Assembly (NCBI GenBank): GCA_015064355.1
Contig: SVSJ01000006.1
Span: 19,873 to 83,872, forward strand
DNA length: 64,000 bases
From: Oscillospiraceae bacterium
GTDB taxonomy: Bacteria > Bacillota > Clostridia > Oscillospirales > CAG-272
Direction: 5' to 3'
The translations under genes and the position numbers were made by a program. The notes below the pieces were generated by a model, which worked only from the letters and a program-made list of their open reading frames with translations, was not told the DNA's origin and made no database searches. Below are positions 706-60,234 of this stretch, one piece after another (the stretch's first letter is position 1; each line of letters opens with the position of its first letter).

Positions 706-1378
706 TGAACATACCTCCTACTCTGTCCTCCACGATATATCCGTCGCGAAGGCTGACAACGCGCTGCTTATAATAGTCAACGAGACTCTTCTCGTGAGTA
801 ACAACGATTACAGTCTTGCCGAGCTTATTGATCTTAACAAGCAAGCTCATGATCTCAAGGGACATTTTCGGGTCGATATTACCAGTAGGCTCGTCCGCGA
901 TAATTACCTTGGGGTTATTTGCAAGAGCTCTGGCAAGGGCAACTCTCTGCTGCTCACCACCGGAGATCTCGTGAGGATAGGAATCCTGTTTTCCCGCAAG
1001 GTTTACTGTATTCAGAATAGCGGGAACGCGGCGTGCGATCTTTTTTCTGGGAGTTCCAACAACTTCCATGGCGAAGGCAACGTTTTCATAAACGGTCTTC
1101 TTCGGGAAAAGTCTGAAATCCTGGAAAACCACGCCAAGCTCACGTCTGTAGTGAGGTACGCGAAGATTGGACATATTGGTCAGGTCATAGTCGCCAACGA
1201 TAAGCTTACCGGAGGTAGCCTTCTCTTCTCGGAGCAAAAGCTTCATAAGCGTAGTCTTACCGGCTCCTGAATGACCTACGATAAACACAAATTCGCCATC
1301 GTCAATATGGAGGTTAACCCCTTTGAGGGCCATCGTTCCATTTGGATAGGCTTTTTTAACATTCACAAAATCTATCAT
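692..1378 (-). CDS. ftsE: Cell division ATP-binding protein FtsE
   Basis: Walker [10 protein letters not shown], signature [14 protein letters not shown], Walker [13 protein letters not shown]; adjacent to ftsX. Confidence 0.95.
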
Positions 1379-1523
1379 AAAATACCTTTCTTACCATAGT
1401 CAAGGTTATTAATGTGCGCATTATACAAGTTCAAAGCAAAAAGCGTCCTGTAAATACAGAATAACGCCAATATTTGAAAATATTGTTTTACTATTCTGTA
1501 TACAGATTGTTATTAAGCCATAA

Positions 1524-1570
1524 TAAAAATACTGCAGGGACTGTATTTCCTCGGAAATCATGTCCCTGTA
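1524..1570 (-). terminator. Rho-independent terminator downstream of the CdaR-like gene
   Basis: cagggac...gtccctg stem with T-rich tract on the minus strand. Confidence 0.6.
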
Positions 1571-1622
1571 TTATTTATGTTATTCGGTTAGTGATCCGAA
1601 ATATCGGTCGACCGCCGGTAAA

Positions 1623-2708: not shown

Positions 2709-2929
2709 ACGGTATACCTTCCATTATATATAGATTTTAACATTGTAAATACTATACTATATTTTACACGATAATTTGTTATTTTTCAATAGGAAAATAA
2801 GTATTTTTCATATATTTTGACACTTTTTTTCGTAAAATATCATAGCAATTGTCAATTATTTACGATTTGGACATTTTTTTGGAATAGTGAAATTACACAA
2901 ATGAGTTCTTCTCTGACCAGTCAAGAGAC

Positions 2930-2963
2930 AAAAAATCAGTGACCCGAGAGCATCAGGTCACTG
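2930..2963 (-). terminator. Rho-independent terminator
   Basis: cagtgacc...ggtcactg stem followed by T6 on the minus strand, downstream of the 2981-3448 gene. Confidence 0.75.
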
Positions 2964-2980
2964 TAATTTTCGTTTTGTTA

Positions 2981-3448
2981 TTATTTCTTGTAAAGAAGAA
3001 TTGTGTAGATGTAATATACTGCAAAGAGTACGCTTACGATCATTGTCATTGTATAGAACAGGTAGGGAGTAATTCTGAACACATTGTAGAATACGCCTGT
3101 ATTAACAACAGCAAGATAAAGAGTAGCGGCTGAGATCATAGCGGGGGTCATAACATAAGCCGAGGTGTCTATCTTCTTTACTATTGTAATAATGAAGTAA
3201 ACAACAGAAGCAGCGAACAGTCCCCAGAACACCCATGCAAGAACCGGACGAACATTCATATAGAAGGGCGCTTCAACTTCTGCAGGGCTATGGGTGATAT
3301 AGTGGAACAGCCACGCTACGATAAGGTCGAGAGCTGCTATAATAACTATTCTCCAAAAAATTATAGCACCAGCTTCATCCTTGGAAAGCTTGCCGATCTT
3401 TGTCTGATTAAATTCAGGTTTAATAAGTCTTGTCTTTGCCATATTCAT
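2981..3448 (-). CDS. Hypothetical membrane protein (4 predicted TM segments)
   Basis: 155 aa ORF with hydrophobic segments; own terminator downstream; unusual SD-start spacing (see findings). Confidence 0.75.
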   Translation of the reverse strand: MNMAKTRLIKPEFNQTKIGKLSKDEAGAIIFWRIVIIAALDLIVAWLFHYITHSPAEVEAPFYMNVRPVLAWVFWGLFAASVVYFIITIVKKIDTSAYVMTPAMISAATLYLAVVNTGVFYNVFRITPYLFYTMTMIVSVLFAVYYIYTILLYKK

Positions 3449-3523
3449 CTTATGATAAGCTTCGTTCTTTTTGAAGCTTTCTCCTTTCTATTATGGGGGA
3501 CGGTTTTGTTTCTATTATCCTTA

Positions 3524-4267
3524 TTATAATTCGTATTCGTATGCCAGACAGGAAAGAACAAACGGTGCCGCAGTTTCTGTGCGGAGAATGCGCTTGCCAA
3601 GTCCGGTCATCTTCATGCCTGCGGAATTTGCGAGATCCGCTTCAGCTTCTTCGAATCCGCCTTCAGGTCCGATCATGATCGCCACGCTCTTCGGGTCTAT
3701 GCACTGTTCTGTTATATTCGGCAGAGGGGCTGTTCCCTCCCCTTCGTAGCAAAACAGAGCCAGATCGGTTTCAGTAGCCATTTTTACGGCATCGCTGAAT
3801 TTCACGGGATTTTTAACTATCGGAATCATACCTCGGCCGCACTGCTTTGCAGCTTCGTAAACGATTCTTTGCCAACGTTCAGTCTTTTTTGCGTAGTCGG
3901 ACTCAGTAAGTTTTACTGTGCATCTGGTCGTGATCACGGGAACGATCTCACAAGCACCAAGCTCTGTTGACTTTTGCAAAACCGTGTCGAAGCGGTCTCC
4001 CTTAACAAGAGCCTGAAAAACAACTGCCTTGTACGGCGGCTCGTTTAAAGACTGTCTCTTGTTAAGAACGTCTAGAACCACCTCTGCCCCCAGTGACAGA
4101 ACAACGGTCTCATATTCGATGCCACCCTCGTCACAAACGGTAACGCGTTCACCGGGCTTCATTCTTAACACCCTGGTAATATGAGCCGCATCGTCGCCGC
4201 GAACAGTTATAAGCACTCGGTCGGGTGTCAGAGACACATCAGACGACGAAACAAAAAATCTTGGCAT
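3524..4267 (-). CDS. rsmE: 16S rRNA (uracil1498-N3)-methyltransferase RsmE
   Basis: MPRFFV...HITRVLRMKPGERVTVCDEGG...IGPEGGFEEAEADLA...LGKRILRTETA motifs. Confidence 0.93.
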   Translation of the reverse strand: MPRFFVSSSDVSLTPDRVLITVRGDDAAHITRVLRMKPGERVTVCDEGGIEYETVVLSLGAEVVLDVLNKRQSLNEPPYKAVVFQALVKGDRFDTVLQKSTELGACEIVPVITTRCTVKLTESDYAKKTERWQRIVYEAAKQCGRGMIPIVKNPVKFSDAVKMATETDLALFCYEGEGTAPLPNITEQCIDPKSVAIMIGPEGGFEEAEADLANSAGMKMTGLGKRILRTETAAPFVLSCLAYEYEL

Positions 4268-4599
4268 GATAAATCCTTAATCTTTCAGAGCAAGCGTGGC
4301 CTGCTCACTTTCATACACCAATGAATTATACCACAAAACAATTCATTTGTCAAACGATTTTGCAGAGAATTTATGCATATATTTTTAAAAAAGTTATATT
4401 TTTTTGCTTTTTTAATGTGTTTTAGCGGATTTTGTCACCGGTTTCCGCGCTCGTGCAACGATCCAACGCAAATACTTCACCAAATACTGAATACGGAATG
4501 ATTCTTTAACTTGGCACTAAATACGGGGTATGGGTCAATTTGCATAGAATTTTCGTTGATTTTTTGTTCACTATTTAATCACATTTTCGTCGACATTTC

Positions 4600-4628
4600 T
4601 TGACAAAAAATCCACAATATGTTATACT
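4600..4628 (+). promoter_or_regulatory. Sigma-A-type promoter of the permease gene
   Basis: TTGACA (4600-4605), 17 bp spacer, TATACT (4623-4628). Confidence 0.85.
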
Positions 4629-4634
4629 ACTCCT

Positions 4635-4753
4635 AACGTGTGTCCGTATGCTTTCGGACACGTTTGCAAGATCGGTGTTACCCACGGTAATCTTGCTGTG
4701 AGGAGATTTCTTCCCCTCATTCACCAAATAATATAATATTATTGGAGGAAGTT
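4635..4753 (+). promoter_or_regulatory. Structured 5' leader (four consecutive inverted repeats) of the permease mRNA
   Basis: Hairpins 635-664, 666-696, 699-719 and 727-743 (offsets +4000) between the promoter and SD/ATG. Confidence 0.6.
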
Positions 4754-6124
4754 ATGCAACTTATCTACAAGCCCCAAGACAAACCCAAGTTTGGCCAGCT
4801 GATCGTATTTGCTATTCAGCAGCTTCTTGCGATCATGGCAGCTACAATCGCTGTTCCCGCTATCGTTGGTAACGGTATGACCGCTTCTGCCGCTCTCTTC
4901 GGCGCAGGTGCAGGCACTATTATCTACCAGCTTTTCACAAAGTTTAAGAGCCCTGTATTCCTTGGCTCATCCTTCGCATTCATCGGTTCTATGGCTACCG
5001 CTTTTGCCGGAGCTGCTTCTATGTCTCTCGGTTATCTCGGTCTCCTTCTCGGTGCTTTTTTCGCAGGTCTCGTATACGTTATCATCGCTATCGTAGTTAA
5101 GTTCGCAGGCGTTAAGTGGATCAACAAGCTTATGCCCCCCGTTGTTATCGGTCCCACAGTTGCTCTCATCGGTCTTTCCCTTGCAGGCGCTGCTGTTAAT
5201 GACGTATTCTCCTACGGTCCCCAGGACGGCAACGGTTCCTTCATTATGTCCGGCAGCGCATGGGTTTCCTTCATCTGCGCTATGGTTACTCTCGTAGTAG
5301 TTATCCTCTGCTCCGTTTACGGCAAGAAGATGGCAAAGCTTATCCCCTTCATCATCGGTATCCTCGCAGGCTACGCTGTTGGCCTCGTATTCACTCTCAT
5401 CGGTATCGCTACAGACAACGCTAACCTTATGATCATTGATTTTGCCCCCTTCAAGGCTCTCGTTGCTGACGGCGTTAACCTCAGCACATTCCTTGCTGTG
5501 CCCAAGTTCACATTCCTTGAAGCTATCAAGGGTGTCGGCGACTTCAGCTGGTCCTACGTTGCTACAATCGCTGTTGCATTCGTTCCCGTTGCATTCGTTG
5601 TATTTGCTGAGCACATCGCAGACCACAAGAACCTCTCCACAATTATCGAGCAGGAACTTCTTGAAGAACCCGGTCTCCACAGAACACTTCTCGGTGACGG
5701 TGTTGGTTCTATCGTTGGCGCTATCTTCGGTGGTTGTCCCAACACAACATACGGTGAATCCGTTGGTTGCGTAGCTATCACAAGAAACGCTTCCATCGTT
5801 ACAATCACCACAACCGCTATTATGGCGATCCTCGTTTCCTTCATTTCCCCCTTCGTTGCATTCCTTGATTCCATCCCCGGCTGCGTAATGGGTGGCGTTT
5901 GCATCACTCTCTACGGCTTCATCGCAGTTTCCGGTCTCAAGATGATCCAGAAGGTTAACCTTGAAGATCACGCAAATCTCTTCACAGTTGCTGCAATCCT
6001 TATCCCCGGTATCGGCGGTATGGCTATGGCAATCGGCAAGGTTACTATCACAGCTATCGCTTGCTCTCTCATTCTCGGTATCATTGTTAACATCATTCTT
6101 AACAAGGGCAGACAGGCTGAATAA
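4754..6124 (+). CDS. Uracil/xanthine permease (NCS2 family)
   Basis: ATG at 4754 preceded by GGAGGA; NCS2 transporter motifs 'LGDGVGSIVGAIFGGCPNTTYGESVGCVAITRNAS'. Confidence 0.92.
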   Translation: MQLIYKPQDKPKFGQLIVFAIQQLLAIMAATIAVPAIVGNGMTASAALFGAGAGTIIYQLFTKFKSPVFLGSSFAFIGSMATAFAGAASMSLGYLGLLLGAFFAGLVYVIIAIVVKFAGVKWINKLMPPVVIGPTVALIGLSLAGAAVNDVFSYGPQDGNGSFIMSGSAWVSFICAMVTLVVVILCSVYGKKMAKLIPFIIGILAGYAVGLVFTLIGIATDNANLMIIDFAPFKALVADGVNLSTFLAVPKFTFLEAIKGVGDFSWSYVATIAVAFVPVAFVVFAEHIADHKNLSTIIEQELLEEPGLHRTLLGDGVGSIVGAIFGGCPNTTYGESVGCVAITRNASIVTITTTAIMAILVSFISPFVAFLDSIPGCVMGGVCITLYGFIAVSGLKMIQKVNLEDHANLFTVAAILIPGIGGMAMAIGKVTITAIACSLILGIIVNIILNKGRQAE

Positions 6125-6145
6125 TCAAATTAAGACAAAAAATTA

Positions 6146-6174
6146 CCGCATGGCAAAACGTCATGCGGTTTTTT
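6146..6174 (+). terminator. Rho-independent terminator of the permease gene
   Basis: ccgcatg-N9-catgcgg followed by T6. Confidence 0.9.
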
Positions 6175-6179
6175 GTTTG

Positions 6180-8186
6180 TTATTTTGTGTATTTTCCGTC
6201 TATTGCGGTGTTGTTTTCGGTGATATAAAGACGGTAGCGGGGGGAATTTGGGATGTCCGCCTTACTAACGCCCACACAAACAAACCAATCCACTCCAACA
6301 TCGGCGCCAAAGTTCAGCGTATCAAGGGAAACCGTCAGAAGTTTTCCCTCCTCTACCGTAACACTTGTAATAACGTTGCCGGTATTGTAGTGTCCTTGGC
6401 TGAAGTGAATAAAGATCAGTGCGTTTTCGTTAAACCATTCAGCGTTGTACGGTGCGGTCAATCCTTCAAAGGTTATCGTGTTAGAGGTTATGTAGTATAT
6501 TGATTCATCGAAAACAAGCTTTTCATTTATCTCACTAACGAAAGCTGCATAGCTGTCATAGTCGGTAAAAACCGACATATCACCGTATAGTGACGAACTT
6601 TCTTTTGTGGAATAATCGAAAATGTCCTGTGGAGTGTATTCAGAGTTCCAGATAAATGCCATATCTCCAAGCATCTCGTATTTGACTTCGTTTGCTACCC
6701 GGTTGTCTTTGGAGTATTTATCATACCCTATATCCCACTTGTCGAGATCATCTATCGATATTCTTCCCGCGGCAAGTGCGTTACCTACACTCTCCATAGT
6801 GTCGTCGGCATATATGACTACCACTGCCGCTTCATAAGGTGTATGAAGAACGTACCAATACTTATCATCCTCATAGATCGTGTCATAGGTATCGTCGTAC
6901 ATTCCGCCCCCGAAGTCGTTTTTCAATTCCCCACTTGCCACTCGGTCGTATATAACTTTTACACCCGTAGTTCCTTTATACTGATTCGACTCAGTATAAT
7001 AATCAATTCCGAATCTGTCGAGATCTTCTATGGTCGCACGTCCTGCGGAAAGCGCCAACCACACAGGCTCAGTTGAACCGTCTTCGTAAACTGCAATAAC
7101 AAGATCTTTTATCCAGTTCATAAAGAAATATTCGTATTCATCATCTGCATAAAATTTCTGGCCTGCGGTCGAATACTCACAATCTGTGACAGCGGTTAAA
7201 TCTATGATATTTACAAGAGTGGATTTACCGGAGTCATCCTTTGATTCTTTGTAATAACTGATCCCGAATCTGTCGAGGTCTTCGATCGTTGCTCTGCCGG
7301 ATGTTAATGCGTCCTTCACGTTTTCCTGCCAGCCGGCTTCGTAGATCACCACGATGTACTCGCTCTTCAATGAGGAGAAAATGTAGCGGTAGGTCTCGTC
7401 CTCGTAGAACACCTCTTCCATCTCCGCAGTCTCAATGCCGTACTCAACAGACCAGTCCGTGATATTCGCGATAGGCATTGGGGTTTTAACAGCAGGCTTA
7501 TCTACGGTGATATAGTCTATGTTATACAGTTTCAACTGATCAACGCCAAGGAGTCCCATCTCCAGCGCTTCACGTATGGTGTAGATCATGTCGTTACTGC
7601 ACTGGACTATTACGTACTCGCTTTTGATACTTGGGAAGTAGTACATGGAATACTCGTCTTCCCAGAATTTCTCGAGAGCATCATCTGTGGGAATCCCATC
7701 GGTAACAGTGCGGTCTATGACCTGAATAACGTACACAGGTCTAACACGCTCTTCTTTATAGTAGCCGATGCCGAAACGGTCAAGGTCGGTTATGGTGATT
7801 CGACCCTCTCCAAGTGCTTCTTTAGCTGGCTGTGTAGTGCCGTCGGAGTAATGCACTATAACGTACTGGCTTTTGATGCTGGGGAAATAATAATTATAGT
7901 ATTCGTCAGAATAAAAGCCCTCCAGCGCATCTGCCGTGACTATGTCCCCGTTTTCAGTAAGATCAACTATGTCTACAATCTCAACCACTTCGGGCACGGG
8001 CGTGTCCTCTTCCGTGTCAGGTGTGGTTTCGGGAATCTCCGGGAACGGGTCGGTGGGATAGGGGCCTGTGGGATATGGTTCAGTTACCCAACCGTCAGGC
8101 AAGTCGCCGGTATCCTCTGTGCAGCCAACAAGACAAACTGCCCACGCAATGACAATAACCATAAACAGTAATGCAATTTTCTTCAT
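6180..8186 (-). CDS. Secreted lipoprotein with five ~75-80 aa 'YYFPSIKSEYVIV..DGT..VKEAL..GRATIEDLDRFGIDYY' repeats and a C-terminal domain
   Basis: Lipobox LVGC after signal peptide MKKIALLFMVIVIAWAVCLVG; repeats read directly in the translation. Confidence 0.85.
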   Translation of the reverse strand: MKKIALLFMVIVIAWAVCLVGCTEDTGDLPDGWVTEPYPTGPYPTDPFPEIPETTPDTEEDTPVPEVVEIVDIVDLTENGDIVTADALEGFYSDEYYNYYFPSIKSQYVIVHYSDGTTQPAKEALGEGRITITDLDRFGIGYYKEERVRPVYVIQVIDRTVTDGIPTDDALEKFWEDEYSMYYFPSIKSEYVIVQCSNDMIYTIREALEMGLLGVDQLKLYNIDYITVDKPAVKTPMPIANITDWSVEYGIETAEMEEVFYEDETYRYIFSSLKSEYIVVIYEAGWQENVKDALTSGRATIEDLDRFGISYYKESKDDSGKSTLVNIIDLTAVTDCEYSTAGQKFYADDEYEYFFMNWIKDLVIAVYEDGSTEPVWLALSAGRATIEDLDRFGIDYYTESNQYKGTTGVKVIYDRVASGELKNDFGGGMYDDTYDTIYEDDKYWYVLHTPYEAAVVVIYADDTMESVGNALAAGRISIDDLDKWDIGYDKYSKDNRVANEVKYEMLGDMAFIWNSEYTPQDIFDYSTKESSSLYGDMSVFTDYDSYAAFVSEINEKLVFDESIYYITSNTITFEGLTAPYNAEWFNENALIFIHFSQGHYNTGNVITSVTVEEGKLLTVSLDTLNFGADVGVDWFVCVGVSKADIPNSPRYRLYITENNTAIDGKYTK
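6711..7976 (-). repeat. Five imperfect protein-coding repeats within the 6180-8186 lipoprotein
   Basis: aa 71-492; conserved F/Y-Y-x-DE-Y-x-YYF and DLDRFGIxYY signatures. Confidence 0.85.
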
Positions 8187-48264: not shown

Positions 48265-50247
48265 TTATGAGTTTTGCTGTTTTCTGAATATCACACCGCC
48301 AAGAGGAGGCAGATTAATAGTGATATAATTATGACGCTCGCCGCGCTCGTCGGTTACTGCCCGTGTGCGGACGCCCTCCTCGTTCAGTTTGTTCTTTCCG
48401 CCGTATTCGTAATTGTCAGTAGAAAGCACCTCTTCGTATCTGCCCATCTTGGGAACTTCAACAACGAAGTCTCGTCTCTCCACAGGTGCAAAGTTTAGCA
48501 CAACGATAAGCTCCTTGCCCTTTTTGTCACGTCTGCGATAAGAAATCACGTTTATATCAGCGGCATCCGGATCGATCCAGGTGAATCCGTCCCATCCGTC
48601 ATCAATATCCCAAAGCTCGGAATTCTCAAGGTACAGGTGGTTTATTGCGCGAACAAACCTCTGCATTTCAACGTGGCGAGGATAGTCGATCATAAACCAC
48701 TCAAGCTGGTTGGTATAGTCCCATTCTCTGAACTGAGCAAATTCCGTACCCATAAACGTAAGCTTTTTGCCCGGCAGAGTCATCATATACATAATGAGAG
48801 TTCTCATACAGGCGAACTTGTCATCGTATTCGCCGAAGCACTTATCAACGAGGGACTTCTTGCAATGCACTACTTCGTCGTGAGAGATCGGCAAGATATA
48901 GTTCTCGCTGAAAGCATACATAAGCGGGAACGTCAGCTTGTTGTGGTGGTATTTACGGGCAATGGAATCTGTTGAAACATACTCAAAAATATCATTTGCC
49001 CAACCCATATTCCACTTGAAATTGAAGCCGAGGCCACCTGCGAACACAGGCTTTGTGATCATCGGCCAGGCGGTTGATTCCTCCGCAATCATAAGCATAT
49101 CGGGGAATTCGCCGAATACCGCTTCGTTCAGCTTCTTGAAGAATGCGATTGCCTCAAGGTTGTGGTTTGTACCTTCGGAATTAGGAAGCCACTTGCCCGG
49201 TTCTCTGTCGAAGTCAAGATACAGCATAGCAGCTACCGCGTCGATACGAAGTCCGTCAACATGGTATTCCCTCATCCAGAACAAAGCGTTTGAAACAAGG
49301 AAGGACTGTACCTCCGGACGGCCAACGTCAAAGTAACGTGTACCCCAGCTTGGGCTTTCCATTCTGTCCCATCCCTGGTATTCGTAGAGAGGCTGTCCGT
49401 CAAACTCAAAAAGACCGTTTTCATCCTTGGGGAAATGAGCGGGTACCCAGTCAAGAATTACACCGATACCGCAGGAGTGCATCTTATCAACGAAATATTT
49501 GAAGTCGTCGGGTGTTCCGAATCTTGAGGTGGGGGCATAATAGCCTGTTACCTGATAACCCCAGGAGCCGTCAAAGGGATGCTCCATAATCGGGAGAAGC
49601 TCAACGTGAGTGTATCCCATATCGAGAACATATGCAGACAGCTTGTCGGCTATCTCTCTGTAATTGAGATAGTGTTCTCCGTCAGCGTTGCTTCTGCCGT
49701 CACGGGTTCTCCATGAACCAAGGTGTACTTCATATATATTCAAGGGTGCGCTGTAAAAATGATGGACCTTCGGTTTGAATCCCCTTGTTTTCGGGCAAAC
49801 CGTTGACATACGCTTCTTCATCCAATCGCCGTCGCGCCAAGTGTGGCCATCCAAGTCGGCAACAATGGACGCTGTTTTACCAAGAGTTTCAGCGTGGAAT
49901 GCGTATGGGTCAGACTTATAATGAGTTTCACCGTTCTGTCCGGTTACAGCAAATTTGTAATATTTTCCCGCAAGGGATCCTTCAGCTTCAACAGCAACCT
50001 CCCAAACGCCACCGTCAGTTACGCGGTGCATCTGCCACCCGTAGTCCCAGTTTGTGAAATCTGCCAGGAGTGAGATGCTTTTAGCGTTTGGCGCCCATAC
50101 TCTGAAGGTATATCTATAGCCAGTTTCGGTCTTTTCACCGTGTGCGCCCAGATATTCGTATGCAATATAATTTGTACCTTGATGGAAGAGGTATGCCGGA
50201 AGTGAGGTGTCTTTCTCCGACAAATTAGTGTTTTTTGTTGTTACCAT
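48265..50247 (-). CDS. glgB: 1,4-alpha-glucan branching enzyme
   Basis: '[21 protein letters not shown]', '[18 protein letters not shown]', '[14 protein letters not shown]'. Start could also be 50256. Confidence 0.97.
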
Positions 50248-50409
50248 AATTATCATCCATCCTTTCTGTTACTATAATTATACATTAATTTCCAACGTTT
50301 TTCAAGAGTTTTTTGATATATATATAAATATTTTTCGTAATTCACAGGAAAATTTTTAGCAATATCAACAAAAAATTGCAAGAAATTATGTATAGTATTC
50401 TTTCTCGAC

Positions 50410-50445
50410 AAAAAACCGTAATACCACTTTGAATGATATTACGGT
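50410..50445 (-). terminator. Rho-independent terminator of the mpg gene
   Basis: accgtaat...attacggt followed by T6 on the minus strand. Confidence 0.8.
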
Positions 50446-50479
50446 GCTTGAGTTGTGTTTATTCAGTTAGTCAGATATA

Positions 50480-51115
50480 CTATTTCTTCAAAAAATCCGG
50501 CACACCGGCGTTTTCCGCAACGGTGAATCGCCAGGGATATGCCGCCGCCTCCCCTGCATAGTCGATTCCGATTCTGGGGGACGTGAGGATCTTCCCTGCC
50601 TTCCATCCGTCGTCACGAATGAAAAAGTTGCCACCGGTCAAGTCGCACCGATCGAGCTCGCAGGTTATTCCCATTGCGTTGCACAGCTTTCCCGGTCCGT
50701 TTGTGAATGAATAAAGCTCCTCTGAAGTCAGCTTTGACGAGTCAGTCGGAATGGACTTGCGTCGGCTCGTTTTTCGCACGTTCTCAAGAAGTGCATCAAT
50801 TCCGCCAATCGGGTACACTCCGCGGATCAGCACAGCCTCGGGCACGTCTGCCGAGTTTGCAGTAACGTTCATGCAAGAGTACATGCCGTAGATCAAGTAA
50901 ACGTATGCGTGGCCGCCGTCCATATACATGGTCTCAGTACGTTTGGTTCGCCGTCCGCCATATGCGTGACAAGCACGGTCGGTCACACCCATATATGCCT
51001 CAGTTTCAGTGATGATTCCGCTGATCTCCACGCCGTCTGTCCGTCTGACAAGGGTTTTTCCGATCAGCTTTTCAGCCAGCGTCAGGGCGTCCACACGAAA
51101 GAAGTTCCGATCCAT
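50480..51115 (-). CDS. DNA-3-methyladenine glycosylase (AAG/MPG family)
   Basis: 'FFRVDALTLAEKLIGKTLVRR', 'ITETEAYMGVTDRACHAYGGRRTKRTETMYMDGGHAYVYLIYGMYSCMNV'. Confidence 0.95.
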   Translation of the reverse strand: MDRNFFRVDALTLAEKLIGKTLVRRTDGVEISGIITETEAYMGVTDRACHAYGGRRTKRTETMYMDGGHAYVYLIYGMYSCMNVTANSADVPEAVLIRGVYPIGGIDALLENVRKTSRRKSIPTDSSKLTSEELYSFTNGPGKLCNAMGITCELDRCDLTGGNFFIRDDGWKAGKILTSPRIGIDYAGEAAAYPWRFTVAENAGVPDFLKK

Positions 51116-51116
51116 G

Positions 51117-51410
51117 TCAGTCGAAGCAGTAAGGTGTTGTGGAGATTGCGCGGCGGGGTGAGGCCATCATAGGAGCAACGGTCTCACGCCATTTATTGTA
51201 ATGTTCAGTCAGCTTGTGTGCTGCTGCAGCGTCCGCGTCGCGGTAAACCTCGAAAAGCACAAACTTATTGGGATCGTTGTTGTCGCGGAGAACGTCGAAT
51301 CTGACGTTGCCTTCTTCTTTTCTTGAGTTTTCGTGGTTATACCTCGTTATCTCCATAAACTGTTCTGTATATTCCGGGATAACATCAACAAAAACCAATG
51401 TTGCAAGCAT
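51117..51410 (-). CDS. Antibiotic biosynthesis monooxygenase-fold (ABM/LsrG-like) protein
   Basis: 'TRYNHENSRKEEGNVRFDVLRDNNDPNKFVLFEVYRDADAAAAHKLTEHYNKW'. Confidence 0.87.
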   Translation of the reverse strand: MLATLVFVDVIPEYTEQFMEITRYNHENSRKEEGNVRFDVLRDNNDPNKFVLFEVYRDADAAAAHKLTEHYNKWRETVAPMMASPRRAISTTPYCFD

Positions 51411-51451
51411 GTTTATTATTCCTCCGACTTGGTTTGTTATTCAAATTTTGA

Positions 51452-51868
51452 TTACTTCTGCTCCAGAATCTTGAAGAATTCAAGTTCTTCCCCGGCAGGT
51501 CCGTAAACGAATGCGCAGTTCAAGGTAAGCTTAATGGGAGCGGAGTCAAGAGGTGCAACAACAGGGGCAGATTTCGACTTTGCACCCGCCTTGAGTGCGG
51601 TTTCGTATGCCTGATCCACGTCATCAACAAGCATTGCGAAATGTATGTATTTGGGGTCTACGCTCTCTTTGTCATTTCCGCCTGCGAAAAGCTCAACGAT
51701 GTCGCCGTTGCCCATATCAAGCATAGCGATCCTGCCGTCACCCTCGCCCCACTGAGTCATAAACTTCATTCCGAGGCCTTCGGTATAAAACTTCATTGAT
51801 TCTTCAAAATCCTTCGCCTTTACTGCGATGTGATGAAATCCCATTCCTTTAATAATTTCGTTTGCCAT
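51452..51868 (-). CDS. VOC family (glyoxalase-like) protein
   Basis: 'GFHHIAVKAKDFEESMKFYTEGLGMKFMTQWGEGDGRIAMLDMGNGDIVELF'. Confidence 0.9.
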   Translation of the reverse strand: MANEIIKGMGFHHIAVKAKDFEESMKFYTEGLGMKFMTQWGEGDGRIAMLDMGNGDIVELFAGGNDKESVDPKYIHFAMLVDDVDQAYETALKAGAKSKSAPVVAPLDSAPIKLTLNCAFVYGPAGEELEFFKILEQK

Positions 51869-51889
51869 TTTTGTCTCCTTGTATGATTA

Positions 51890-52510
51890 TCAATAATATC
51901 TTACGCTTGCCACTACCTTGCCAAGTATCATAAGATTGGTCACGATAATGGGAAGCATAGTTTTGTTCTCGGGTTGAAGTCTGAAGTGGCCATTTTCCTT
52001 ATAGAAAGTTTTGACTGTTGCCTCGTCATCAATAAGTGCCACAACGATATCCCCATTTTCAGCCATAGGAGTTTTCTCGACAATAACAATGTCACCGTCA
52101 AGGATACCAGCCTCGATCATACTTGTGCCGCGAACCTTCAGGGCAAAAAGCTCACCTGACGGAAGGGGTCTAAGTCCTTTGGGATACTGAACAAATCCCT
52201 CGTAGTTCTCAACAGCAAGAATAGGCTGACCCGCAGTTACTTTACCGAGGATCGGCACGTCTGTGTAGTCGCGACCGTCTTCACGGCTATCTGGAATCAA
52301 GCCCTCAATACGCAGGGTGCGGCTCTTGCCGTTTTCCTTCTGAATGTATCCTTTTTTCTCAAGTCTGTCCAGGCACGTATGCACAGTTGATGTGCTCTTG
52401 ATCTTCAGCGCTGCGCAGATATCTCTGATAGACGGAGAATATCCGTTTTTTAAAATATTTTCCTTGATATAATCAAAAACTAATTGTTCCTTTGGTTCAA
52501 GATTTGCCAT
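51890..52510 (-). CDS. lexA: LexA SOS repressor
   Basis: N-terminal wHTH 'NGYSPSIRDICAALKIKSTSTVHTCLDRLEKKGYI'; 'VTAGQPILA', 'VRGTSMIEAGILDGDIVIVEK' Ser-Lys peptidase. Confidence 0.95.
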   Translation of the reverse strand: MANLEPKEQLVFDYIKENILKNGYSPSIRDICAALKIKSTSTVHTCLDRLEKKGYIQKENGKSRTLRIEGLIPDSREDGRDYTDVPILGKVTAGQPILAVENYEGFVQYPKGLRPLPSGELFALKVRGTSMIEAGILDGDIVIVEKTPMAENGDIVVALIDDEATVKTFYKENGHFRLQPENKTMLPIIVTNLMILGKVVASVRYY

Positions 52511-52574
52511 AAAATTACCGCCTTACAAGGATTTTTGCCGGATCTATTGTGATTTCGGTCCATCCGTTTGCCTT

Positions 52575-52613
52575 ATTATAGCACAAACGAACGCAGATGT
52601 AAACACTTGTTCG
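52575..52613 (-). promoter_or_regulatory. lexA promoter with overlapping candidate LexA/SOS box
   Basis: Minus strand: CGAACAAGTGTTTA (52613-52600) overlapping -35 TTTACA (52603-52598), 17 bp, -10 TATAAT (52580-52575). Confidence 0.72.
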
Positions 52614-52850
52614 ATTATTTCTTCAAAAATTCTGCAAATTCTCCATTTTTATTTAAATTTATTTAAAACCCGCAACAGCATTTTTACGTAATTTATTTTT
52701 TAATTATTTGATAATTTTTGAAAATCACTATTGAATTATCGTTTTCATTGTAGTATAATCTATAATAGAGAAATTTGGGAATCAAATGCTGATTCTTCAC
52801 TAAATTTCCAAGAAATTGTCAAAAATTCACTAAATATATAAGGAGTTATC

Positions 52851-54632
52851 ATGACTGCAAACAAGCACGTAATGTCTTGGGTAGAAGAAATGGCTGCCCT
52901 CACAACACCCGACAAGATCGTTTGGATCGACGGTACAGAAGAACAGGCCGAGGCTCTCCGCGCGGAAGCTTGCTCCACAGGAGAAATGATCAAGCTCAAT
53001 GAGGAAAAGCTCCCCGGATGCTACCTCCACCACACAGCTATCAACGACGTTGCAAGAGTTGAAAACAGAACATTCATCTGCACCTCCAAGAAGGAAGATG
53101 CAGGCAACATCAACAACTGGATGGATCCCAAAGAATGCTACGAAAAGCTCGGCAAGCTCTACAAGGGCTCTATGAAGGGCAGAACAATGTACGTTATTCC
53201 CTACTCCATGGGTATCGTTGGTTCTGATTTCGCTAAGTACGGTATCGAGCTCACTGACTCCATTTACGTTGTACTCAACATGCTCATTATGACTCGCGTT
53301 GGCACTAACGTTCTCGAAGCTCTCGGTGAGTCCGCTGACTACATCAAGGGTCTCCACGCAAAGGCTGACCTCGATGAAGAAAACCGTTACATCGTTCACT
53401 TCCCCGAAGACAACACAATCTGGTCCGTTAACTCCGGTTACGGCGGAAACGTTCTTCTCGGTAAGAAGTGCTTCGCTCTCCGTATTGCTTCCTACCTTGG
53501 CCGTAAGGAAGGCTGGATGGCTGAACACATGCTCATCCTCGGCGTTGAATATCCCAATGGTGAAGTTAAGTACATCTCTGCTGCATTCCCCTCCGCTTGC
53601 GGTAAGACCAACCTCGCTATGCTCATTCCTCCGGAAGTTTACGCAAAGCAGGGCTACAAGGTTTGGTGCGTAGGTGACGACATCGCTTGGCTCCGCGTAG
53701 GTGCTGACGGCAGACTCTGGGCTGTTAACCCCGAAAACGGATTCTTCGGCGTTGCTCCCGGTACTAACGAAAAGTCCAACCCCAATGCTCTCCACACCTG
53801 CATGAAGGACACCATCTTCACCAACGTATGCCACAATCTTGATGACAACACCGTTTGGTGGGAAGGTCTTGACAACAATCCTCCTACAAACGCAAAGAAC
53901 TGGAGAAACGAGCCTTGGGACTACAGAACATACGACAAGAACAACAAGGTTCAGACAGCAGGCGCACATCCCAACTCCCGCTTCACAGCTAAGGCTATCA
54001 ACTGCCCCTGCCTCTCTAAGGAATTCAACAATCCCGCAGGCGTGCCCATCTCCGCTATCGTATTCGGCGGCAGACGTGCAAAGACTGCTCCCCTGGTATA
54101 TCAGTCCACATCCTGGCAGAACGGTACATTCGTTGGCTCCATCATGGCTTCCGAAACAACCGCAGCTGCAGCAGGTGCTGTTGGCGTAGTTCGTCGCGAC
54201 CCCATGGCAATGCGTCCCTTCACAGGCTACGACATGGGTGACTATTTCGCACACTGGCTCAATATGGGCAAGAACATCCCCAACGCTCCCAAGATCTTCC
54301 ACGTTAACTGGTTCAGAACAGACGATAGCGGCAACTTCATTTGGCCTGGCTTCGGTGACAACATGAGAGTTCTCCTCTGGATCCTCGACCGTTGCGAAGG
54401 CAAGGTTGACGCTGATCTCACAGCTATCGGTTATGTTCCCAAGGCTGAAGATATCAATATCGAAGGTCTTGAAGATGTTACACTTGATACAATCAAGGAA
54501 CTCGTTTCTGTTGACGTAGAAAGCTGGAAGGCTGACATCGCAAACATCAAGGAATTCTACGCCCTCATCGGTAACAGAGTTCCTGCAGAGCTCCACGAAG
54601 AACTTGCTGCTCTCGAAGCAAGACTCGGTTAA
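52851..54632 (+). CDS. pckG: Phosphoenolpyruvate carboxykinase (GTP)
   Basis: 'FPSACGKTNLAMLIPP', 'GDDIAWLRVGADGRLWAVNPENGFFGVAPGTN', 'FGGRRAKTAPLVYQS'. Confidence 0.97.
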   Translation: MTANKHVMSWVEEMAALTTPDKIVWIDGTEEQAEALRAEACSTGEMIKLNEEKLPGCYLHHTAINDVARVENRTFICTSKKEDAGNINNWMDPKECYEKLGKLYKGSMKGRTMYVIPYSMGIVGSDFAKYGIELTDSIYVVLNMLIMTRVGTNVLEALGESADYIKGLHAKADLDEENRYIVHFPEDNTIWSVNSGYGGNVLLGKKCFALRIASYLGRKEGWMAEHMLILGVEYPNGEVKYISAAFPSACGKTNLAMLIPPEVYAKQGYKVWCVGDDIAWLRVGADGRLWAVNPENGFFGVAPGTNEKSNPNALHTCMKDTIFTNVCHNLDDNTVWWEGLDNNPPTNAKNWRNEPWDYRTYDKNNKVQTAGAHPNSRFTAKAINCPCLSKEFNNPAGVPISAIVFGGRRAKTAPLVYQSTSWQNGTFVGSIMASETTAAAAGAVGVVRRDPMAMRPFTGYDMGDYFAHWLNMGKNIPNAPKIFHVNWFRTDDSGNFIWPGFGDNMRVLLWILDRCEGKVDADLTAIGYVPKAEDINIEGLEDVTLDTIKELVSVDVESWKADIANIKEFYALIGNRVPAELHEELAALEARLG

Positions 54633-54644
54633 TTTAAGACAAAA

Positions 54645-54677
54645 CAAAACGGCTGGCCAATTGGTCAGTCGTTTTTT
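54645..54677 (+). terminator. Terminator-like hairpin, copy 1 of a 33-bp direct repeat
   Basis: caaaacggctggccaattggtcagtcgtttttt; 13-bp stem (two G.U), AATT loop, T-run; follows pckG. Confidence 0.88.
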
Positions 54678-54696
54678 GGTTGTGTATGTGCAACTA

Positions 54697-55377
54697 CTAT
54701 TTCATTCCGAGGTTCGCCAGAGCAAGCCTTTCATTTTGCAAAATGAAATTTTCAATATATTGTTTATTGGGTTGTGATAGCATTTCTATTTTATATTGAA
54801 TGGCATCAAGGTCATCTTTAATTCTCATGTGATAATCTTCTCCTAAATCATCACCGAAACATTCGATATTGCGTTGGTATGCGGTTTCAATTTGATTTTT
54901 CATTGCCAGTAAATGATCAATTCCCTTATTATACCAACTTTCTTTGACCGTCATACAAAACATTACATAATCTAAATCAGGAAACCCGTAGTCGTGATAT
55001 GCTCTATATGCATTACCGGCAGTATCTGCACTTTCAAAAAAGGGGATCAAATACTTTTCTATGTAGTCAAACATGGAGTCAATACAATTATCAATAGAGG
55101 CTAAATCATCTCTGTCAAATTCAAACCATGCATAGCTATTTTCAAAAGACTTTAAGTGAAAATGTCCACAACACGATTTGCTGATTCTTTCTCCACAACA
55201 CAGTGGGAAGGCACAAAATTCAACCGTACACTCCCGCCCACTGATTGATTGGTGTAAAGATAATGATTGAAACACATCATTAATAACTCTATAGAAGTTA
55301 TTTCTATATGGTTTGAAACCATAAGGAGATAATTGTTTTTTGCATCTTTCTTTGAATGTTTTTTCTAAGTACTTCAT
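54697..55377 (-). CDS. Hypothetical protein, DUF4304-like
   Basis: 226 aa, 'FKERCKKQLSPYGFKPYRNNFYRVINDVFQSLSLHQS'; AT-rich; own consensus promoter upstream. Confidence 0.7.
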   Translation of the reverse strand: MKYLEKTFKERCKKQLSPYGFKPYRNNFYRVINDVFQSLSLHQSISGRECTVEFCAFPLCCGERISKSCCGHFHLKSFENSYAWFEFDRDDLASIDNCIDSMFDYIEKYLIPFFESADTAGNAYRAYHDYGFPDLDYVMFCMTVKESWYNKGIDHLLAMKNQIETAYQRNIECFGDDLGEDYHMRIKDDLDAIQYKIEMLSQPNKQYIENFILQNERLALANLGMK

Positions 55378-55449
55378 AATACAATTTACCCTTCGTCGCT
55401 AAGAAGAGAAATAAGGCAGTGTTAGGCAAGAATATATAACTTTACCTCA

Positions 55450-55478
55450 AGTATACAATATTTTATATTCCTTGTCAA
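55450..55478 (-). promoter_or_regulatory. Sigma-A-type promoter of the 54697-55377 gene
   Basis: Minus strand TTGACA (55478-55473), 17 bp, TATACT (55455-55450). Confidence 0.82.
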
Positions 55479-55491
55479 TCACATCACAAGT

Positions 55492-55525
55492 CAAAACGGC
55501 TGGCCAATTGGTCAGTCGTTTTTTT
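55492..55525. terminator. Terminator-like hairpin, copy 2 of the 33-bp direct repeat
   Basis: caaaacggctggccaattggtcagtcgttttttt, identical to 54645-54677 over 33 bp. Confidence 0.85.
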
Positions 55526-55579
55526 GTGCAGAAAAAAAGGACTCACTCATAGTGAATCCCTTTTATGTATTAGGCTAAA

Positions 55580-56911
55580 TTATTTCTTTTTCTTGCCGAG
55601 TGCGATGCCGAGACCTGCGCCAACTACTACTACAACAGCAACGATTGCGATAATGAGACCTGTGTTGTTCTTTTCTACAGGTTCTTCAACCTTGGGAGCT
55701 TCAGTAGCGGGAGCCTCAGTAGCAGGAGCTTCTGTTGCGGGTGCTTCTGTTGCGGGTGCTTCTGTTACAGGTGCTTCTGTTGTGGGAGCTTCTGTAGCGG
55801 GAGCTTCTGTTGCAGGTGCTTCAGTAGCGGGAGCTTCTGTTGCGGGTGCTTCTGTTGCGGGTGCTTCTGTAGCAGGAGCTTCTGTTGCGGGTGCTTCTGT
55901 AGCAGGAGCTTCTGTTGCGGGTGCTTCTGTTGCAGGAGCTTCTGTTGCAGGAGCCTCTGTAGCGGGTGCTTCTGTTGCGGGTGCTTCTGTTGCAGGTGCT
56001 TCTGTTGCAGGTGCTTCAGTAGCAGGTGCTTCAGTAGCAGGTGCTTCAGTTGCAGGAGCCTCTGTGGAAGGTGTTACGTCGCCCTGTGCAGGGTCAATAA
56101 GAACGATAGTGTTCAGAGAATCAGCTGTGCCGTATTCGTAGAACTTACCCCAAGACAGCCAGCCTGCAAGGCCTTCGTCCAATGTGCTTCTTGAGCTCAT
56201 ACGAACAATGCCGGTACCAAGCTCAACACCGTGAAGATTCATCTTCTTTGCATTGAGACCAAGATTTGTAAGAGGAATAGCGATAGTTGCATGCATCATA
56301 TCGTCTTCCATAAGAATATACTTTTCACATTCTGCGGCAGCACCGTGATTGGAAACTGAATAGTCGTCGAAGCCAAGTGTCCAGTAATAGTCGCACATTG
56401 CATCGTAATTCTTTCTGAACTCAACAGTATCAGGATTAGTGGTAGCATCGGTGTCACCGAAGAAGCCGCAATGTGTCATATTGTTTGCAACAAGTGCTTC
56501 GAGGGGCTGAACCCAGATCTGAACACCGTCACCTACCCAAGCTGCGTCAGCACCGCATACTTCATAATCGGGAGAAAGAATACCAACATAAAGATACTTG
56601 TCATCCCAGCAAAGGTAGAGATCAAAAGGACAGTCTTCAGGCTCAACAGACTGACGGCCATCGGGACCTGTACCGCTGTGCCCATAGCCGGCTGTATCAC
56701 GGTATTCGTTCCAGTACTTGTAAAGTTCAGCGTTGTAAGAATCGGGGGTTACTGAGATAGCGGGATCGCCCCAGGATTCGTCGATTTCTTCAAGGTTAGG
56801 AGCCTTGTCAACTTTGTTTGCCTTAACAACTGTACCAACTGCTGCGTTAGCAACAACAGCAAAGCTAATCATCAGTACAGCTACAAGAATGAGAGTAATG
56901 AGTTTCTTCAT
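55580..56911 (-). CDS. Secreted CBM9/DOMON-like surface protein with TEAP repeat stalk and C-terminal TM
   Basis: ATG at 56911; signal peptide MKKLITLILVAVLMISFAVVANA; 'DLYLCWDDKYLYVGI...WVGDGVQIWVQP' CBM9-like; C-terminal 'GLIIAIVAVVVVVGAGLGIALGKKKK'. Confidence 0.82.
   Translation of the reverse strand: MKKLITLILVAVLMISFAVVANAAVGTVVKANKVDKAPNLEEIDESWGDPAISVTPDSYNAELYKYWNEYRDTAGYGHSGTGPDGRQSVEPEDCPFDLYLCWDDKYLYVGILSPDYEVCGADAAWVGDGVQIWVQPLEALVANNMTHCGFFGDTDATTNPDTVEFRKNYDAMCDYYWTLGFDDYSVSNHGAAAECEKYILMEDDMMHATIAIPLTNLGLNAKKMNLHGVELGTGIVRMSSRSTLDEGLAGWLSWGKFYEYGTADSLNTIVLIDPAQGDVTPSTEAPATEAPATEAPATEAPATEAPATEAPATEAPATEAPATEAPATEAPATEAPATEAPATEAPATEAPATEAPATEAPATEAPATEAPATEAPTTEAPVTEAPATEAPATEAPATEAPATEAPKVEEPVEKNNTGLIIAIVAVVVVVGAGLGIALGKKKK
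55694..56065 (-). repeat. 25 tandem 15-bp units encoding (A/T/V)TEAP
   Basis: First TEAP codon block 56065-56054, last 55705-55694, constant 15-bp period. Confidence 0.93.
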
Positions 56912-57139
56912 GATTTTTCTCCTAAAATGATTTTGTTCCAATAAATATGGACTAATATCTTTATACCATATTATCATTGCATAAGTCAAGGGATTTCTAC
57001 AAAAAATTTAAAACCGATTATATTTTTGTAACATTTAACAAAACTACTACTTATTTCAAATTCGCAAACTAACATTTCCGCCGAAGATAACGGCCGGTCA
57101 TTTTTAACCAGCCATTTTTGTTCATTGTACGATTTTGCA

Positions 57140-58888
57140 CTATTTTGTAGCAATATTGACATTCTCTCCTTCGAGCACTATGTCATTGCTAAAGCCGAAA
57201 GTGCCTATCCAACAGTTTCCGCTTACATCAGCGTCAACACAGTAGCGTAGCTTGATCTTGCAGTCAGCGGAGTGCCATTTGGGTCCGGAGAAGCTCTTGA
57301 AAATACGGTTATTTTTGAATGTCAGTCCTTTCACTGAGTACGCGTAGAGAACCGGGGTATCCGTTGTGTCAAACACGTTGTCTGTAATGCAGATGTTTGT
57401 GTGGAACGGGATGTTGATATCCGGTTCAGGCACCTGAGGAGAAATACTTATAATTCCCTCGCAGTCGCCGTAATAAGCGGAGAGACAAACGTCGGTGAAA
57501 ACGTTATTTCTTATTGTCACGTCGTGGCACGGACCCGACTCAAACCAATACATAGCGTCCCCCGGAATAACGATAGGTGAACCTGAGGATGCAAAGTAGT
57601 TATTCTCAACGAGAACGGACTGTGGCGTGGAGATAAGCATTCCTCTTGCATTACTGCTACCAAAACGGTTTCCGCGGCATACAAATGCTGCTGTGTGGCT
57701 GTAATTATCAACCGTAAGCTTGCCGCTTTCAGCGATCTCTTTGACATCATCAGGTATCGGCTCGCTGAACCGGAGCAAGAACGTATCGATATCGAGAAGC
57801 TCGTATTCAGCTGCTGTCATTTTTCCAAGCTGCTCCAGGTTCCCGCGGCGAATAAGTGTGATCTCGTCTCCCTTTTCAGCCCAATAATGGAAGCCTCTTG
57901 CCTCTTCGTGTCCGTATCTGCACTTTAGAGTATAGTCATCCACTACAGATTCAACGGGGCAGCAGCAGCTGTGAATGTTGATTGGGTCGTCCATCAGTCC
58001 TAGGAAAGTGCACTCGCTTACGGTTACTGTACCACTGTTGTTTGTGAGATGGAAGCCGTCGTCCCGTCCGCTGGATACGCTGCGGCCTGCTTTTGTATTG
58101 GGAACAAAATGCAATCTATTGAAGGTCATATCGTGACAGAACTGGGCCAGGCAGCCAAGTCCACCGCAGGAATGAACGATTACGTCATCAACAGTTACGT
58201 TCTCACACTTCTCGGCAAAAATACCTGCGTGGATCCTCATATTGTGGCGCAGGATGAACACGTTTCCGGGTCTTCCGTTCGTCTTTTCCCAGCAGTGCAT
58301 GCGGTACACATTATCTCCAAGGGACTCCACGCTTCTCGGAACAAAATGGTTTCCGTACACACGGCAGGCACACAGGTGTTCTTTGTCATATTGCAGACAG
58401 TTGCGCTGCAGGAGAGGATACCACTCATCGTTGCCAACGTCAAACTCAATATTGCTTCCGGTAAATCTGTGCGGAAAAACCTCGGGGTCGACATACATAT
58501 CTATGTAATACTCACCCAATCCCACTGCAGTCCCCTCGGCAACCAGCGGCTTTTTCCAGTCGATCACAAACCCCTGCATTGTTACGTTTTTGCAGTGGTC
58601 CATGGTCACCGCCTGCATATGGCCGGAATAGTAAAGACGGGCGCCGTTGCCGGTCAGCTTGCAGTTTTCCATTTCCTTCATCCATATACCAAGCACGCGG
58701 TAAGGCATAACTTCGGAATTTGAGATGCGGTAGTCATATCTCATTTCCTCATGTGGGGTGAAGTAATAGTCACCGTCTTCAAACACAAACTCCGTGTCGC
58801 GCGTATTTTCCTTGAACAGTTTCCAAAGAGAAATGGTTATATCGGTGTCGGGCAAGATCCCGTAATCTCTTAAGCGGATAGTTTTCAT
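57140..58888 (-). CDS. Right-handed beta-helix glycosidase, GH110-like (alpha-1,3-galactosidase-like), no signal peptide
   Basis: 'LGIWMKEMENCKLTGNGARLYYSGHMQAVTMDHCKNVTMQGFVIDWKKP', 'NARGMLISTPQSVLVENNYFASSGSPIVIPGDAMYWFESGPCHDVTIRNNVF'. Confidence 0.72.
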   Translation of the reverse strand: MKTIRLRDYGILPDTDITISLWKLFKENTRDTEFVFEDGDYYFTPHEEMRYDYRISNSEVMPYRVLGIWMKEMENCKLTGNGARLYYSGHMQAVTMDHCKNVTMQGFVIDWKKPLVAEGTAVGLGEYYIDMYVDPEVFPHRFTGSNIEFDVGNDEWYPLLQRNCLQYDKEHLCACRVYGNHFVPRSVESLGDNVYRMHCWEKTNGRPGNVFILRHNMRIHAGIFAEKCENVTVDDVIVHSCGGLGCLAQFCHDMTFNRLHFVPNTKAGRSVSSGRDDGFHLTNNSGTVTVSECTFLGLMDDPINIHSCCCPVESVVDDYTLKCRYGHEEARGFHYWAEKGDEITLIRRGNLEQLGKMTAAEYELLDIDTFLLRFSEPIPDDVKEIAESGKLTVDNYSHTAAFVCRGNRFGSSNARGMLISTPQSVLVENNYFASSGSPIVIPGDAMYWFESGPCHDVTIRNNVFTDVCLSAYYGDCEGIISISPQVPEPDINIPFHTNICITDNVFDTTDTPVLYAYSVKGLTFKNNRIFKSFSGPKWHSADCKIKLRYCVDADVSGNCWIGTFGFSNDIVLEGENVNIATK

Positions 58889-59067
58889 ATTTACTCCTAT
58901 TGTATTTCAGCGCCAAACGCACATGAATTATTTGCTTAATGATACCATACATCAAAGCTGTTTTCAAGAGTTTGCAGTATTTTTCCTCTGCGAAAACATT
59001 ACAGTTGATTCGCCGGAGAATTTGTGATATAATTAGTTATTACATATTTTTTTGAGAAAGTATTACT

Positions 59068-60234
59068 ATGACGAATATGCTTAATAACATAAAAAACTCC
59101 CCTGTATACATTAGGAAATGCGACACTTATTCCGTAGACGTTCTTTACGGAATTTTCAGTGATGCATTCAAGAAGCTGGGCTTTACCCGTGAGCTGATCG
59201 AAGGTAAAAACGTGCTCCTCAAGCCCAATCTGGTGCTTGCAAAAAAGCCGGAATTCGGCGCAACGTCACACCCACTATTCGTAGAGGCCTGCGCAAAGCT
59301 GATCTGCGATATGGGAGCTGCGAGCGTTACCCTGGCGGACTCCCCAGGCGGGCCTTTCGTTGCGGCAAATATTAACAACACCTATCGCGCTTGCGAAATG
59401 ACCTCCATCAACTGCGCCAAGATGAAGCTTAACGACGACTTCACTTGGCAAAGCGTGCGCGTAAACGGCGAAAAACTAAAAAATTTCCACGTAATAAGCG
59501 CGGTGTACAACGCAGACGTGATCGTGGATCTGTGCAAGCTGAAAACACACTCTCTGACAGGGCTCAGCGGTGCTACGAAAAATCTTTTTGGAATCATTCC
59601 CGGTGTGGAAAAGTTTGAAATGCACTCCACCTTCCCCGAGGTTTCCGACTTCAGCAAGATGCTCGTGGATCTTTCGTCTTATGTGCTTGAGAACAAGACT
59701 TTTATTGCCCTTTGTGATGCGATCATCTCAATGGAGGGAAACGGCCCCACCCACGGCACACCGAAAAAGACTGATACAGTCCTCATCTCCCGTTCTCCTT
59801 ACGCGCTTGATGTTGTTGGCGAGCATCTTATGAAAAACGACGGCAACGTAAAGCATCTTGACTGTGCGTCAGAGCGCGGTTACGTTTCAAGGAACTGGGA
59901 AGAAATCGAGCTTCTCGGAGACTGTGAGATCCCACAGTACGATTTCGTTCAGCCTGATACTACCAGCTTCCTTGGCAATCTTTCAGGATTTATGGGCGGA
60001 CGTTTTGCCAAGCTCTTTGAAGCTAAGCCTGCCATCAACAAGAAAAAATGCATCGGCTGCGGCAAATGTGCGGAGTCCTGCCCACGGCACACCATTACCA
60101 TTGACAAAAAGGGCAAGAAAAAGCTTGCTGTTATCCACCGCGGCGATTGCATCCGTTGCTACTGTTGCCAGGAGCTTTGCCCAATCGGTGCCGTTGATGT
60201 ACAGCAGAACATAATTATTAAACTGATTCATTGA
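59068..60234 (+). CDS. DUF362 protein with C-terminal 2x[4Fe-4S] ferredoxin domain
   Basis: DUF362-like 'KPNLVLAKKPEFGATSHP'; 'CIGCGKCAESCPRHTI' and 'CIRCYCCQELCPIGAV'. Confidence 0.9.
   Translation: MTNMLNNIKNSPVYIRKCDTYSVDVLYGIFSDAFKKLGFTRELIEGKNVLLKPNLVLAKKPEFGATSHPLFVEACAKLICDMGAASVTLADSPGGPFVAANINNTYRACEMTSINCAKMKLNDDFTWQSVRVNGEKLKNFHVISAVYNADVIVDLCKLKTHSLTGLSGATKNLFGIIPGVEKFEMHSTFPEVSDFSKMLVDLSSYVLENKTFIALCDAIISMEGNGPTHGTPKKTDTVLISRSPYALDVVGEHLMKNDGNVKHLDCASERGYVSRNWEEIELLGDCEIPQYDFVQPDTTSFLGNLSGFMGGRFAKLFEAKPAINKKKCIGCGKCAESCPRHTITIDKKGKKKLAVIHRGDCIRCYCCQELCPIGAVDVQQNIIIKLIH

What the first reader, a model, noticed from the sequence alone, without database searches (positions are those of the whole stretch)
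54645..55525. AT-rich orphan gene bracketed by two identical 33-bp terminator hairpins: possible terminator-mediated cassette
caaaacggctggccaattggtcagtcgtttttt occurs identically at 54645-54677 and 55492-55524. Between them is one minus-strand gene (DUF4304-like, visibly more AT-rich than its neighbours) with its own near-perfect promoter. The hairpins are direct repeats, so recombination between them would excise the ~850-bp unit cleanly and leave a functional pckG terminator. This resembles insertion or duplication at a terminator without any transposase.
Basis: partly seen in the sequence, partly recalled or inferred. Interest (0 to 1): 0.6.

Follow-up and report, generated by a model that had tools for sequence, protein, structure and literature searches.

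The report
Immunity-like gene between duplicated terminator hairpins
A gut clostridial genome carries a foreign-looking gene, probably an orphan antidote against a rival bacterium's toxin, sitting behind a metabolic gene between two identical copies of that gene's stop-transcription hairpin, and a similar layout in a few other genomes of the family hints at a way small genes settle without an obvious enzyme.

Summary
The 33-mer occurs exactly twice in the window and twice in the whole MAG, in direct orientation 847 bp apart. Between the copies lies one minus-strand DUF4304-family gene with a near-consensus promoter and GC3 of 30%, against 56-58% in neighbours.

The insertion reading is largely supported. 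The nearest relative held (G005) is colinear on both sides but has one pckG hairpin and 12 bp where the window has 2.47 kb. The extra DNA holds two genes, the DUF4304 gene and a copy of a multi-copy surface-protein gene, so the difference is more than one cassette.

The gene is probably an orphan immunity gene. Its two closest relatives, and a third DUF4304 gene, start 4-14 bp inside the 3' end of frames encoding nuclease-like toxin tips, two with RHS sequence. No RHS core was found in this MAG.

Two other genomes of the family carry a DUF4304 gene between identical hairpins that occur exactly twice per genome. How the terminator is duplicated is not shown; no recombinase, transposase or terminal inverted repeat was found at the locus. 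Excision is untested.

The parts
52851..54632 (+). pckG, GTP-type phosphoenolpyruvate carboxykinase, host gene of the terminator
   Evidence: PF00821 and PF17297
54645..54677 (+). T1: intrinsic-terminator hairpin of pckG, first copy of the 33-mer
   Evidence: orthologous to the single G005 hairpin
54678..54696 (.). 19-bp spacer between T1 and the stop codon of the DUF4304 gene; colinearity with G005 ends at 54685
54697..55377 (-). DUF4304-family gene, 226 aa, putative orphan immunity protein
   Evidence: PF14137; relatives start inside toxin 3' ends
55450..55478 (-). sigma-70-type promoter of the DUF4304 gene, TTGACA-17-TATACT
55492..55524 (+). T2: second, identical copy of the 33-mer; no + strand gene ends in front of it
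55530..55565 (-). separate terminator hairpin of the surface-protein gene
55580..56911 (-). surface-protein gene with (ATEAP)n repeats, member of a multi-copy family; also absent from the G005 site
57140..58888 (-). beta-helix protein gene, right flank; directly follows the pckG terminator in G005

Best explanation
An AT-rich, self-promoted immunity-type gene (DUF4304, Imm54-like) was acquired horizontally and inserted, antiparallel to pckG, at the pckG terminator; the event left one full copy of the host terminator on each side (T1 and T2). T1 still ends pckG transcripts; the gene is transcribed from its own promoter as an orphan immunity gene that would neutralise a nuclease-tipped toxin delivered by competitors. 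Shown: the anatomy, the composition, the patchy distribution, the colinear one-hairpin site in G005, and linkage of its relatives to toxin frames. Inferred: gain rather than loss, that the terminator duplication came with the insertion, and the protective function.
For: 33-mer exactly twice in the genome. GC3 30 against 56-58%. DUF4304 homologue in 1 of 25 genus genomes, 2 of 295 order genomes, Pfam family in 25 of 196 family genomes. G005 colinear with a 12-bp gap and one hairpin. Relatives start 4-14 bp inside toxin frames with RHS or Tox-REase-9 signatures; Tox-REase-9 is paired with Imm54 in PMC3482391. Two further DUF4304 genes lie between hairpins found exactly twice per genome. Controls: 0 of 71 pckG loci with a gene-sized duplicate; T1/T2 the only such repeat in about 0.45 Mb of the genus.
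Against: Only one informative relative, of another species, and its site lacks a second gene too. The duplicated stretches in the three DUF4304 cases differ in length (33, 74, about 200 bp), which does not point to one enzyme. Most DUF4304 loci have no such repeats. No toxin binding or protection was tested; the Imm54 identity rests on short motifs and partner toxins.
Confidence: 0.6

Rival explanations
1. Homologous (Campbell-type) integration: a circular or multimeric donor from a relative already carried the DUF4304 gene next to the same terminator, and a single crossover in the hairpin inserted it, giving direct repeats without any special mechanism.
For: 33-42 bp of identity is near the lower limit for RecA-type recombination (general knowledge); direct repeats are the expected product.
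Against: The hairpin is found nowhere else in the MAG or in 24 genus genomes, so no donor is known; it does not explain similar layouts at unrelated terminators in G187 and G084.
Confidence: 0.2
2. The terminator duplicated on its own (slippage or template switching at the hairpin) and the gene arrived independently, so the bracketing is coincidental.
For: Hairpins are prone to such errors (general knowledge); duplicate lengths differ between cases.
Against: Two other DUF4304 genes are bracketed in the same way while background loci are not.
Confidence: 0.1
3. The window state is ancestral and G005 lost both genes.
For: Only two genomes share this neighbourhood; polarity cannot be read from them alone.
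Against: The gene is absent from the other 24 genus genomes, has foreign composition, and the surface-protein gene is one of many paralogs.
Confidence: 0.07
4. Assembly artefact of a MAG: a false join through the hairpin or the repetitive surface-protein gene.
For: Two other contigs of this MAG (C31, C11) end at or near paralogs of the repeat gene; read coverage is not available.
Against: Both outer flanks are colinear with G005; a 33-bp repeat is shorter than usual final k-mers (general knowledge).
Confidence: 0.05

Closest known systems
Orphan immunity genes and polyimmunity loci of polymorphic toxin systems (PMC3482391), Imm54
   Same: Short immunity-type gene without its toxin; relatives directly follow nuclease-tipped toxins; partner toxin class matches (Tox-REase-9 with Imm54)
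   Different: A single gene with its own promoter between terminator copies, not a co-oriented array
rAID systems of gut Bacteroidales (PMC12247911)
   Same: AT-rich orphan immunity-type gene in a gut bacterium
   Different: No co-oriented array, no conserved intergenic motif, no tyrosine recombinase on the contig
Integron gene cassettes
   Same: One small gene bracketed by hairpin-forming direct repeats
   Different: Own promoter, no attC-type core sites seen, no integrase on the contig; repeats are copies of a host terminator
Elements that land at terminators (group IIC introns, Tn7-type elements; from general knowledge)
   Same: A transcription terminator as insertion place
   Different: No group II intron match in Rfam for the region, no transposase seen; those elements are not known to duplicate the whole hairpin

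Membership tests
DUF4304 (PF14137) | Score above the curated Pfam cut-off | tested here: met
   27.4 bits against 23.2
Imm54-like immunity protein | Gene placed directly behind a REase-type polymorphic toxin | tested here: not met
   Not at the window locus, and no RHS core in the MAG; met for relatives in G036, G230 and G094
Imm54-like immunity protein | Alpha+beta protein with conserved GF and Q | tested here: inconclusive
   GF conserved in the alignment; fold not resolved, pLDDT 40
Imm54-like immunity protein | Binds and neutralises its toxin | not testable with these tools
   Needs a bench assay
rAID system | Tyrosine recombinase next to the genes | tested here: not met
   PF00589 hits only on other contigs
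[quoted passage not shown]
   A single gene, though its GC is 33.6%
Integron cassette | Promoterless ORF with an attC site and an IntI integrase | tested here: not met
   Own promoter, no attC-type ends seen in the sequence, no integrase on the contig; IntI itself was not searched for
DDE transposon / IS | Terminal inverted repeats and a transposase | tested here: not met
   Longest inverted match across the flanks 9 bp; no transposase among the ORFs around the site
Group IIC intron | Intron RNA inserted at a terminator | tested here: not met
   No group II hit in Rfam up to E=1 for 52000-59500

The most novel reading that the evidence does not exclude
In this gut clostridial family, small self-promoted immunity or defence genes are spread by a mechanism that uses host intrinsic terminators as target and leaves a full terminator copy on each side, so an insertion is transcriptionally neutral to the host gene and could be reversed by recombination between the copies.
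Probability: 0.25. Interest if true: 0.75.

Novelty: new variant of a known kind. Interest (0 to 1): 0.45.

Why it matters
How orphan immunity genes enter and leave genomes is open; the rAID preprint says the way its arrays gain genes is not yet clear (PMC12247911). A terminator-duplicating insertion would explain how an isolated immunity gene settles without harming the host transcript, and it gives a search signature (a hairpin that occurs exactly twice, bracketing one AT-rich gene) that can be run on many genomes.

Tried and rejected
Close homologues of the protein in GTDB contigs, plasmids, phages and viral contigs: none. Literature on DUF4304: none. Single-sequence AlphaFold: pLDDT 40, not used for a fold search. 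PDB profile search: nothing better than E=0.045. PADLOC: E=0.0044 to a homing endonuclease model, judged not credible. Third hairpin at 57085-57117 as another terminator copy: not above chance (25-31 of 500 shuffles). Cassette-specific promoter: rejected, since the same promoter pattern precedes an ordinary-looking sugar-kinase-type gene (judged by eye). Motif m (see noticed in passing) at the window locus: no match in this MAG. A general rule that motif-m cassettes sit between duplicated terminators: not supported (7 of 29 own pairs score 20 or more, against 42 of 328 cross-locus control pairs; only G187, G084 and G100 are clear).

Full report
Observation. The 33-mer is present twice, identical and in direct orientation, at 54645-54677 (T1) and 55492-55524 (T2). 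The MAG (2.17 Mb, 80% complete) has no third copy within 3 mismatches, and the core hairpin is absent from 24 other genomes of the genus. Exact homology stops at 33 bp, or 42 bp at 93% with flanks. As + strand RNA the hairpin folds at -18.8 kcal/mol (shuffles -5 to -6) and ends in a T run, so it is a pckG-oriented terminator; the minus reading is weaker, -10.3.

The enclosed gene. ORF 54697-55377(-), 226 aa, passes the Pfam cut-off for DUF4304. Its promoter TTGACA-17-TATACT lies 13 bp from T2. GC is 33.6% against 51.0% (pckG) and 48.4% (beta-helix gene); GC3 is 30 against 58 and 56%. T2 has no + strand gene in front of it, and the next minus gene has its own terminator at 55530-55565, so T2 has no obvious job, as expected of a duplicated or displaced terminator.

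Comparison with relatives. The downstream neighbour of pckG differs in nearly every relative inspected, mostly with an unrelated hairpin of its own (judged by eye). Of the relatives checked, only G005 (pckG 96.6% aa) has the beta-helix gene there. Window 50130-54685 aligns to G005 14-4598 and 57153-58892 to 4611-6350: 12 bp against 2.47 kb. G005 has one hairpin, orthologous to T1 (score 23, best of 500 shuffles 15). The extra DNA holds the DUF4304 unit and an (ATEAP)n surface-protein gene of a multi-copy family whose similarity to its paralogs begins about 4 bp past T2. Polarity (gain) is inferred from the patchy distribution (1 of 25 in the genus; 2 of 295 in the order) and from composition.

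What the gene does. The G036 relative (41% identity, full length) starts 4 bp inside a frame that follows an RHS core; that frame has a GRADLI...D-K stretch which by eye resembles the other two nuclease-like tips. The G230 relative (26%) starts 4 bp inside a frame with RHS-type sequence (read by eye) and the same kind of tip. A G094 DUF4304 gene overlaps a Tox-REase-9 toxin by 14 bp. In Zhang et al. 2012, Tox-REase-9 is paired with Imm54, described as alpha+beta with GF and Q (PMC3482391); GF is conserved here. DUF4304 as Imm54 is a reasoned lead, not a proven identity. No RHS core was found in this MAG, so the gene is best read as an orphan immunity gene.

Recurrence. Among roughly two dozen DUF4304 loci of the family with usable flanks, two besides ours lie between direct repeats of 40 bp or more. 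In G187 (74 bp at 99%, next to a tRNA gene) and in G084 (about 200 bp in several blocks, with a strong hairpin) the hairpin occurs exactly twice per genome. In G100 a different gene lies between two near-identical copies of what looks like a tRNA terminator. Against this, 0 of 71 pckG loci have a gene-sized duplication of the downstream stretch, and in about 0.45 Mb sampled from three genomes of the genus T1/T2 is the only such repeat with a hairpin arm of 13 or more. Across all motif-m cassettes the pattern is not general, duplicate lengths vary, and the G187, G084 and G100 cassettes carry a 3' element that the window lacks. The recurrence is real but small; a common mechanism is not shown.

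Mechanism. Most likely an insertion at the terminator duplicated it, in the geometry of a staggered opening at the hairpin base followed by gap filling; this step is inference. Campbell-type integration at the hairpin is the main rival. No tyrosine recombinase lies on the contig, no long inverted repeats span the flanks and no intron RNA was found. Recombination between T1 and T2 would leave one intact terminator beside the repeat gene, but excision was not testable.

Verdict. Observation confirmed; interpretation partly supported. A new variant of a known kind (orphan immunity gene acquisition), with an unproven but testable idea about terminators as landing sites.

Noticed in passing
L050, L060, L096, L228, L229, L231, L243 (family genomes; no match in the window's MAG): Motif m: a conserved element of about 100 bp, TACATAGRYTCGTTTGCAAGCATGG-variable middle-CTCCCATCATCGCCAAGGGATAAGTCTATCC, at or near the stop codon of AT-rich genes (DUF4304, HTH, OLD-type nuclease, methylase and others), in 25 of 118 family genomes, partly in same-strand clusters, often followed about 60 bp later by a terminator-like hairpin; no Rfam match at the curated threshold. 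Some cassettes share a conserved left end. It looks like the 3' end of a mobile gene cassette.
   Followed up: partly
L079:9154-12664 (G000 contig C45, just left of the window): Four AT-rich co-oriented orphan genes, with near-identical promoter blocks repeated between them (37 bp exact at 956 bp spacing): an array of unknown function.
   Followed up: partly
window 55580-56911; L070, L071: Surface-type protein with a signal-like start, (ATEAP)n repeats and a C-terminal hydrophobic anchor, present in many copies in this MAG and fewer, more diverged copies in G005.
   Followed up: partly
L096:1-360; L050:2097-2284: Repeated copies of a tRNA 3' end with terminator-like hairpins next to the intact tRNA, as left by successive integrations at a tRNA gene.
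   Followed up: no
L125:2-850 (G036): The RHS frame ends at 448, before the nuclease-like tip, which is read in another frame up to the immunity gene: a displaced or broken toxin tip.
   Followed up: no
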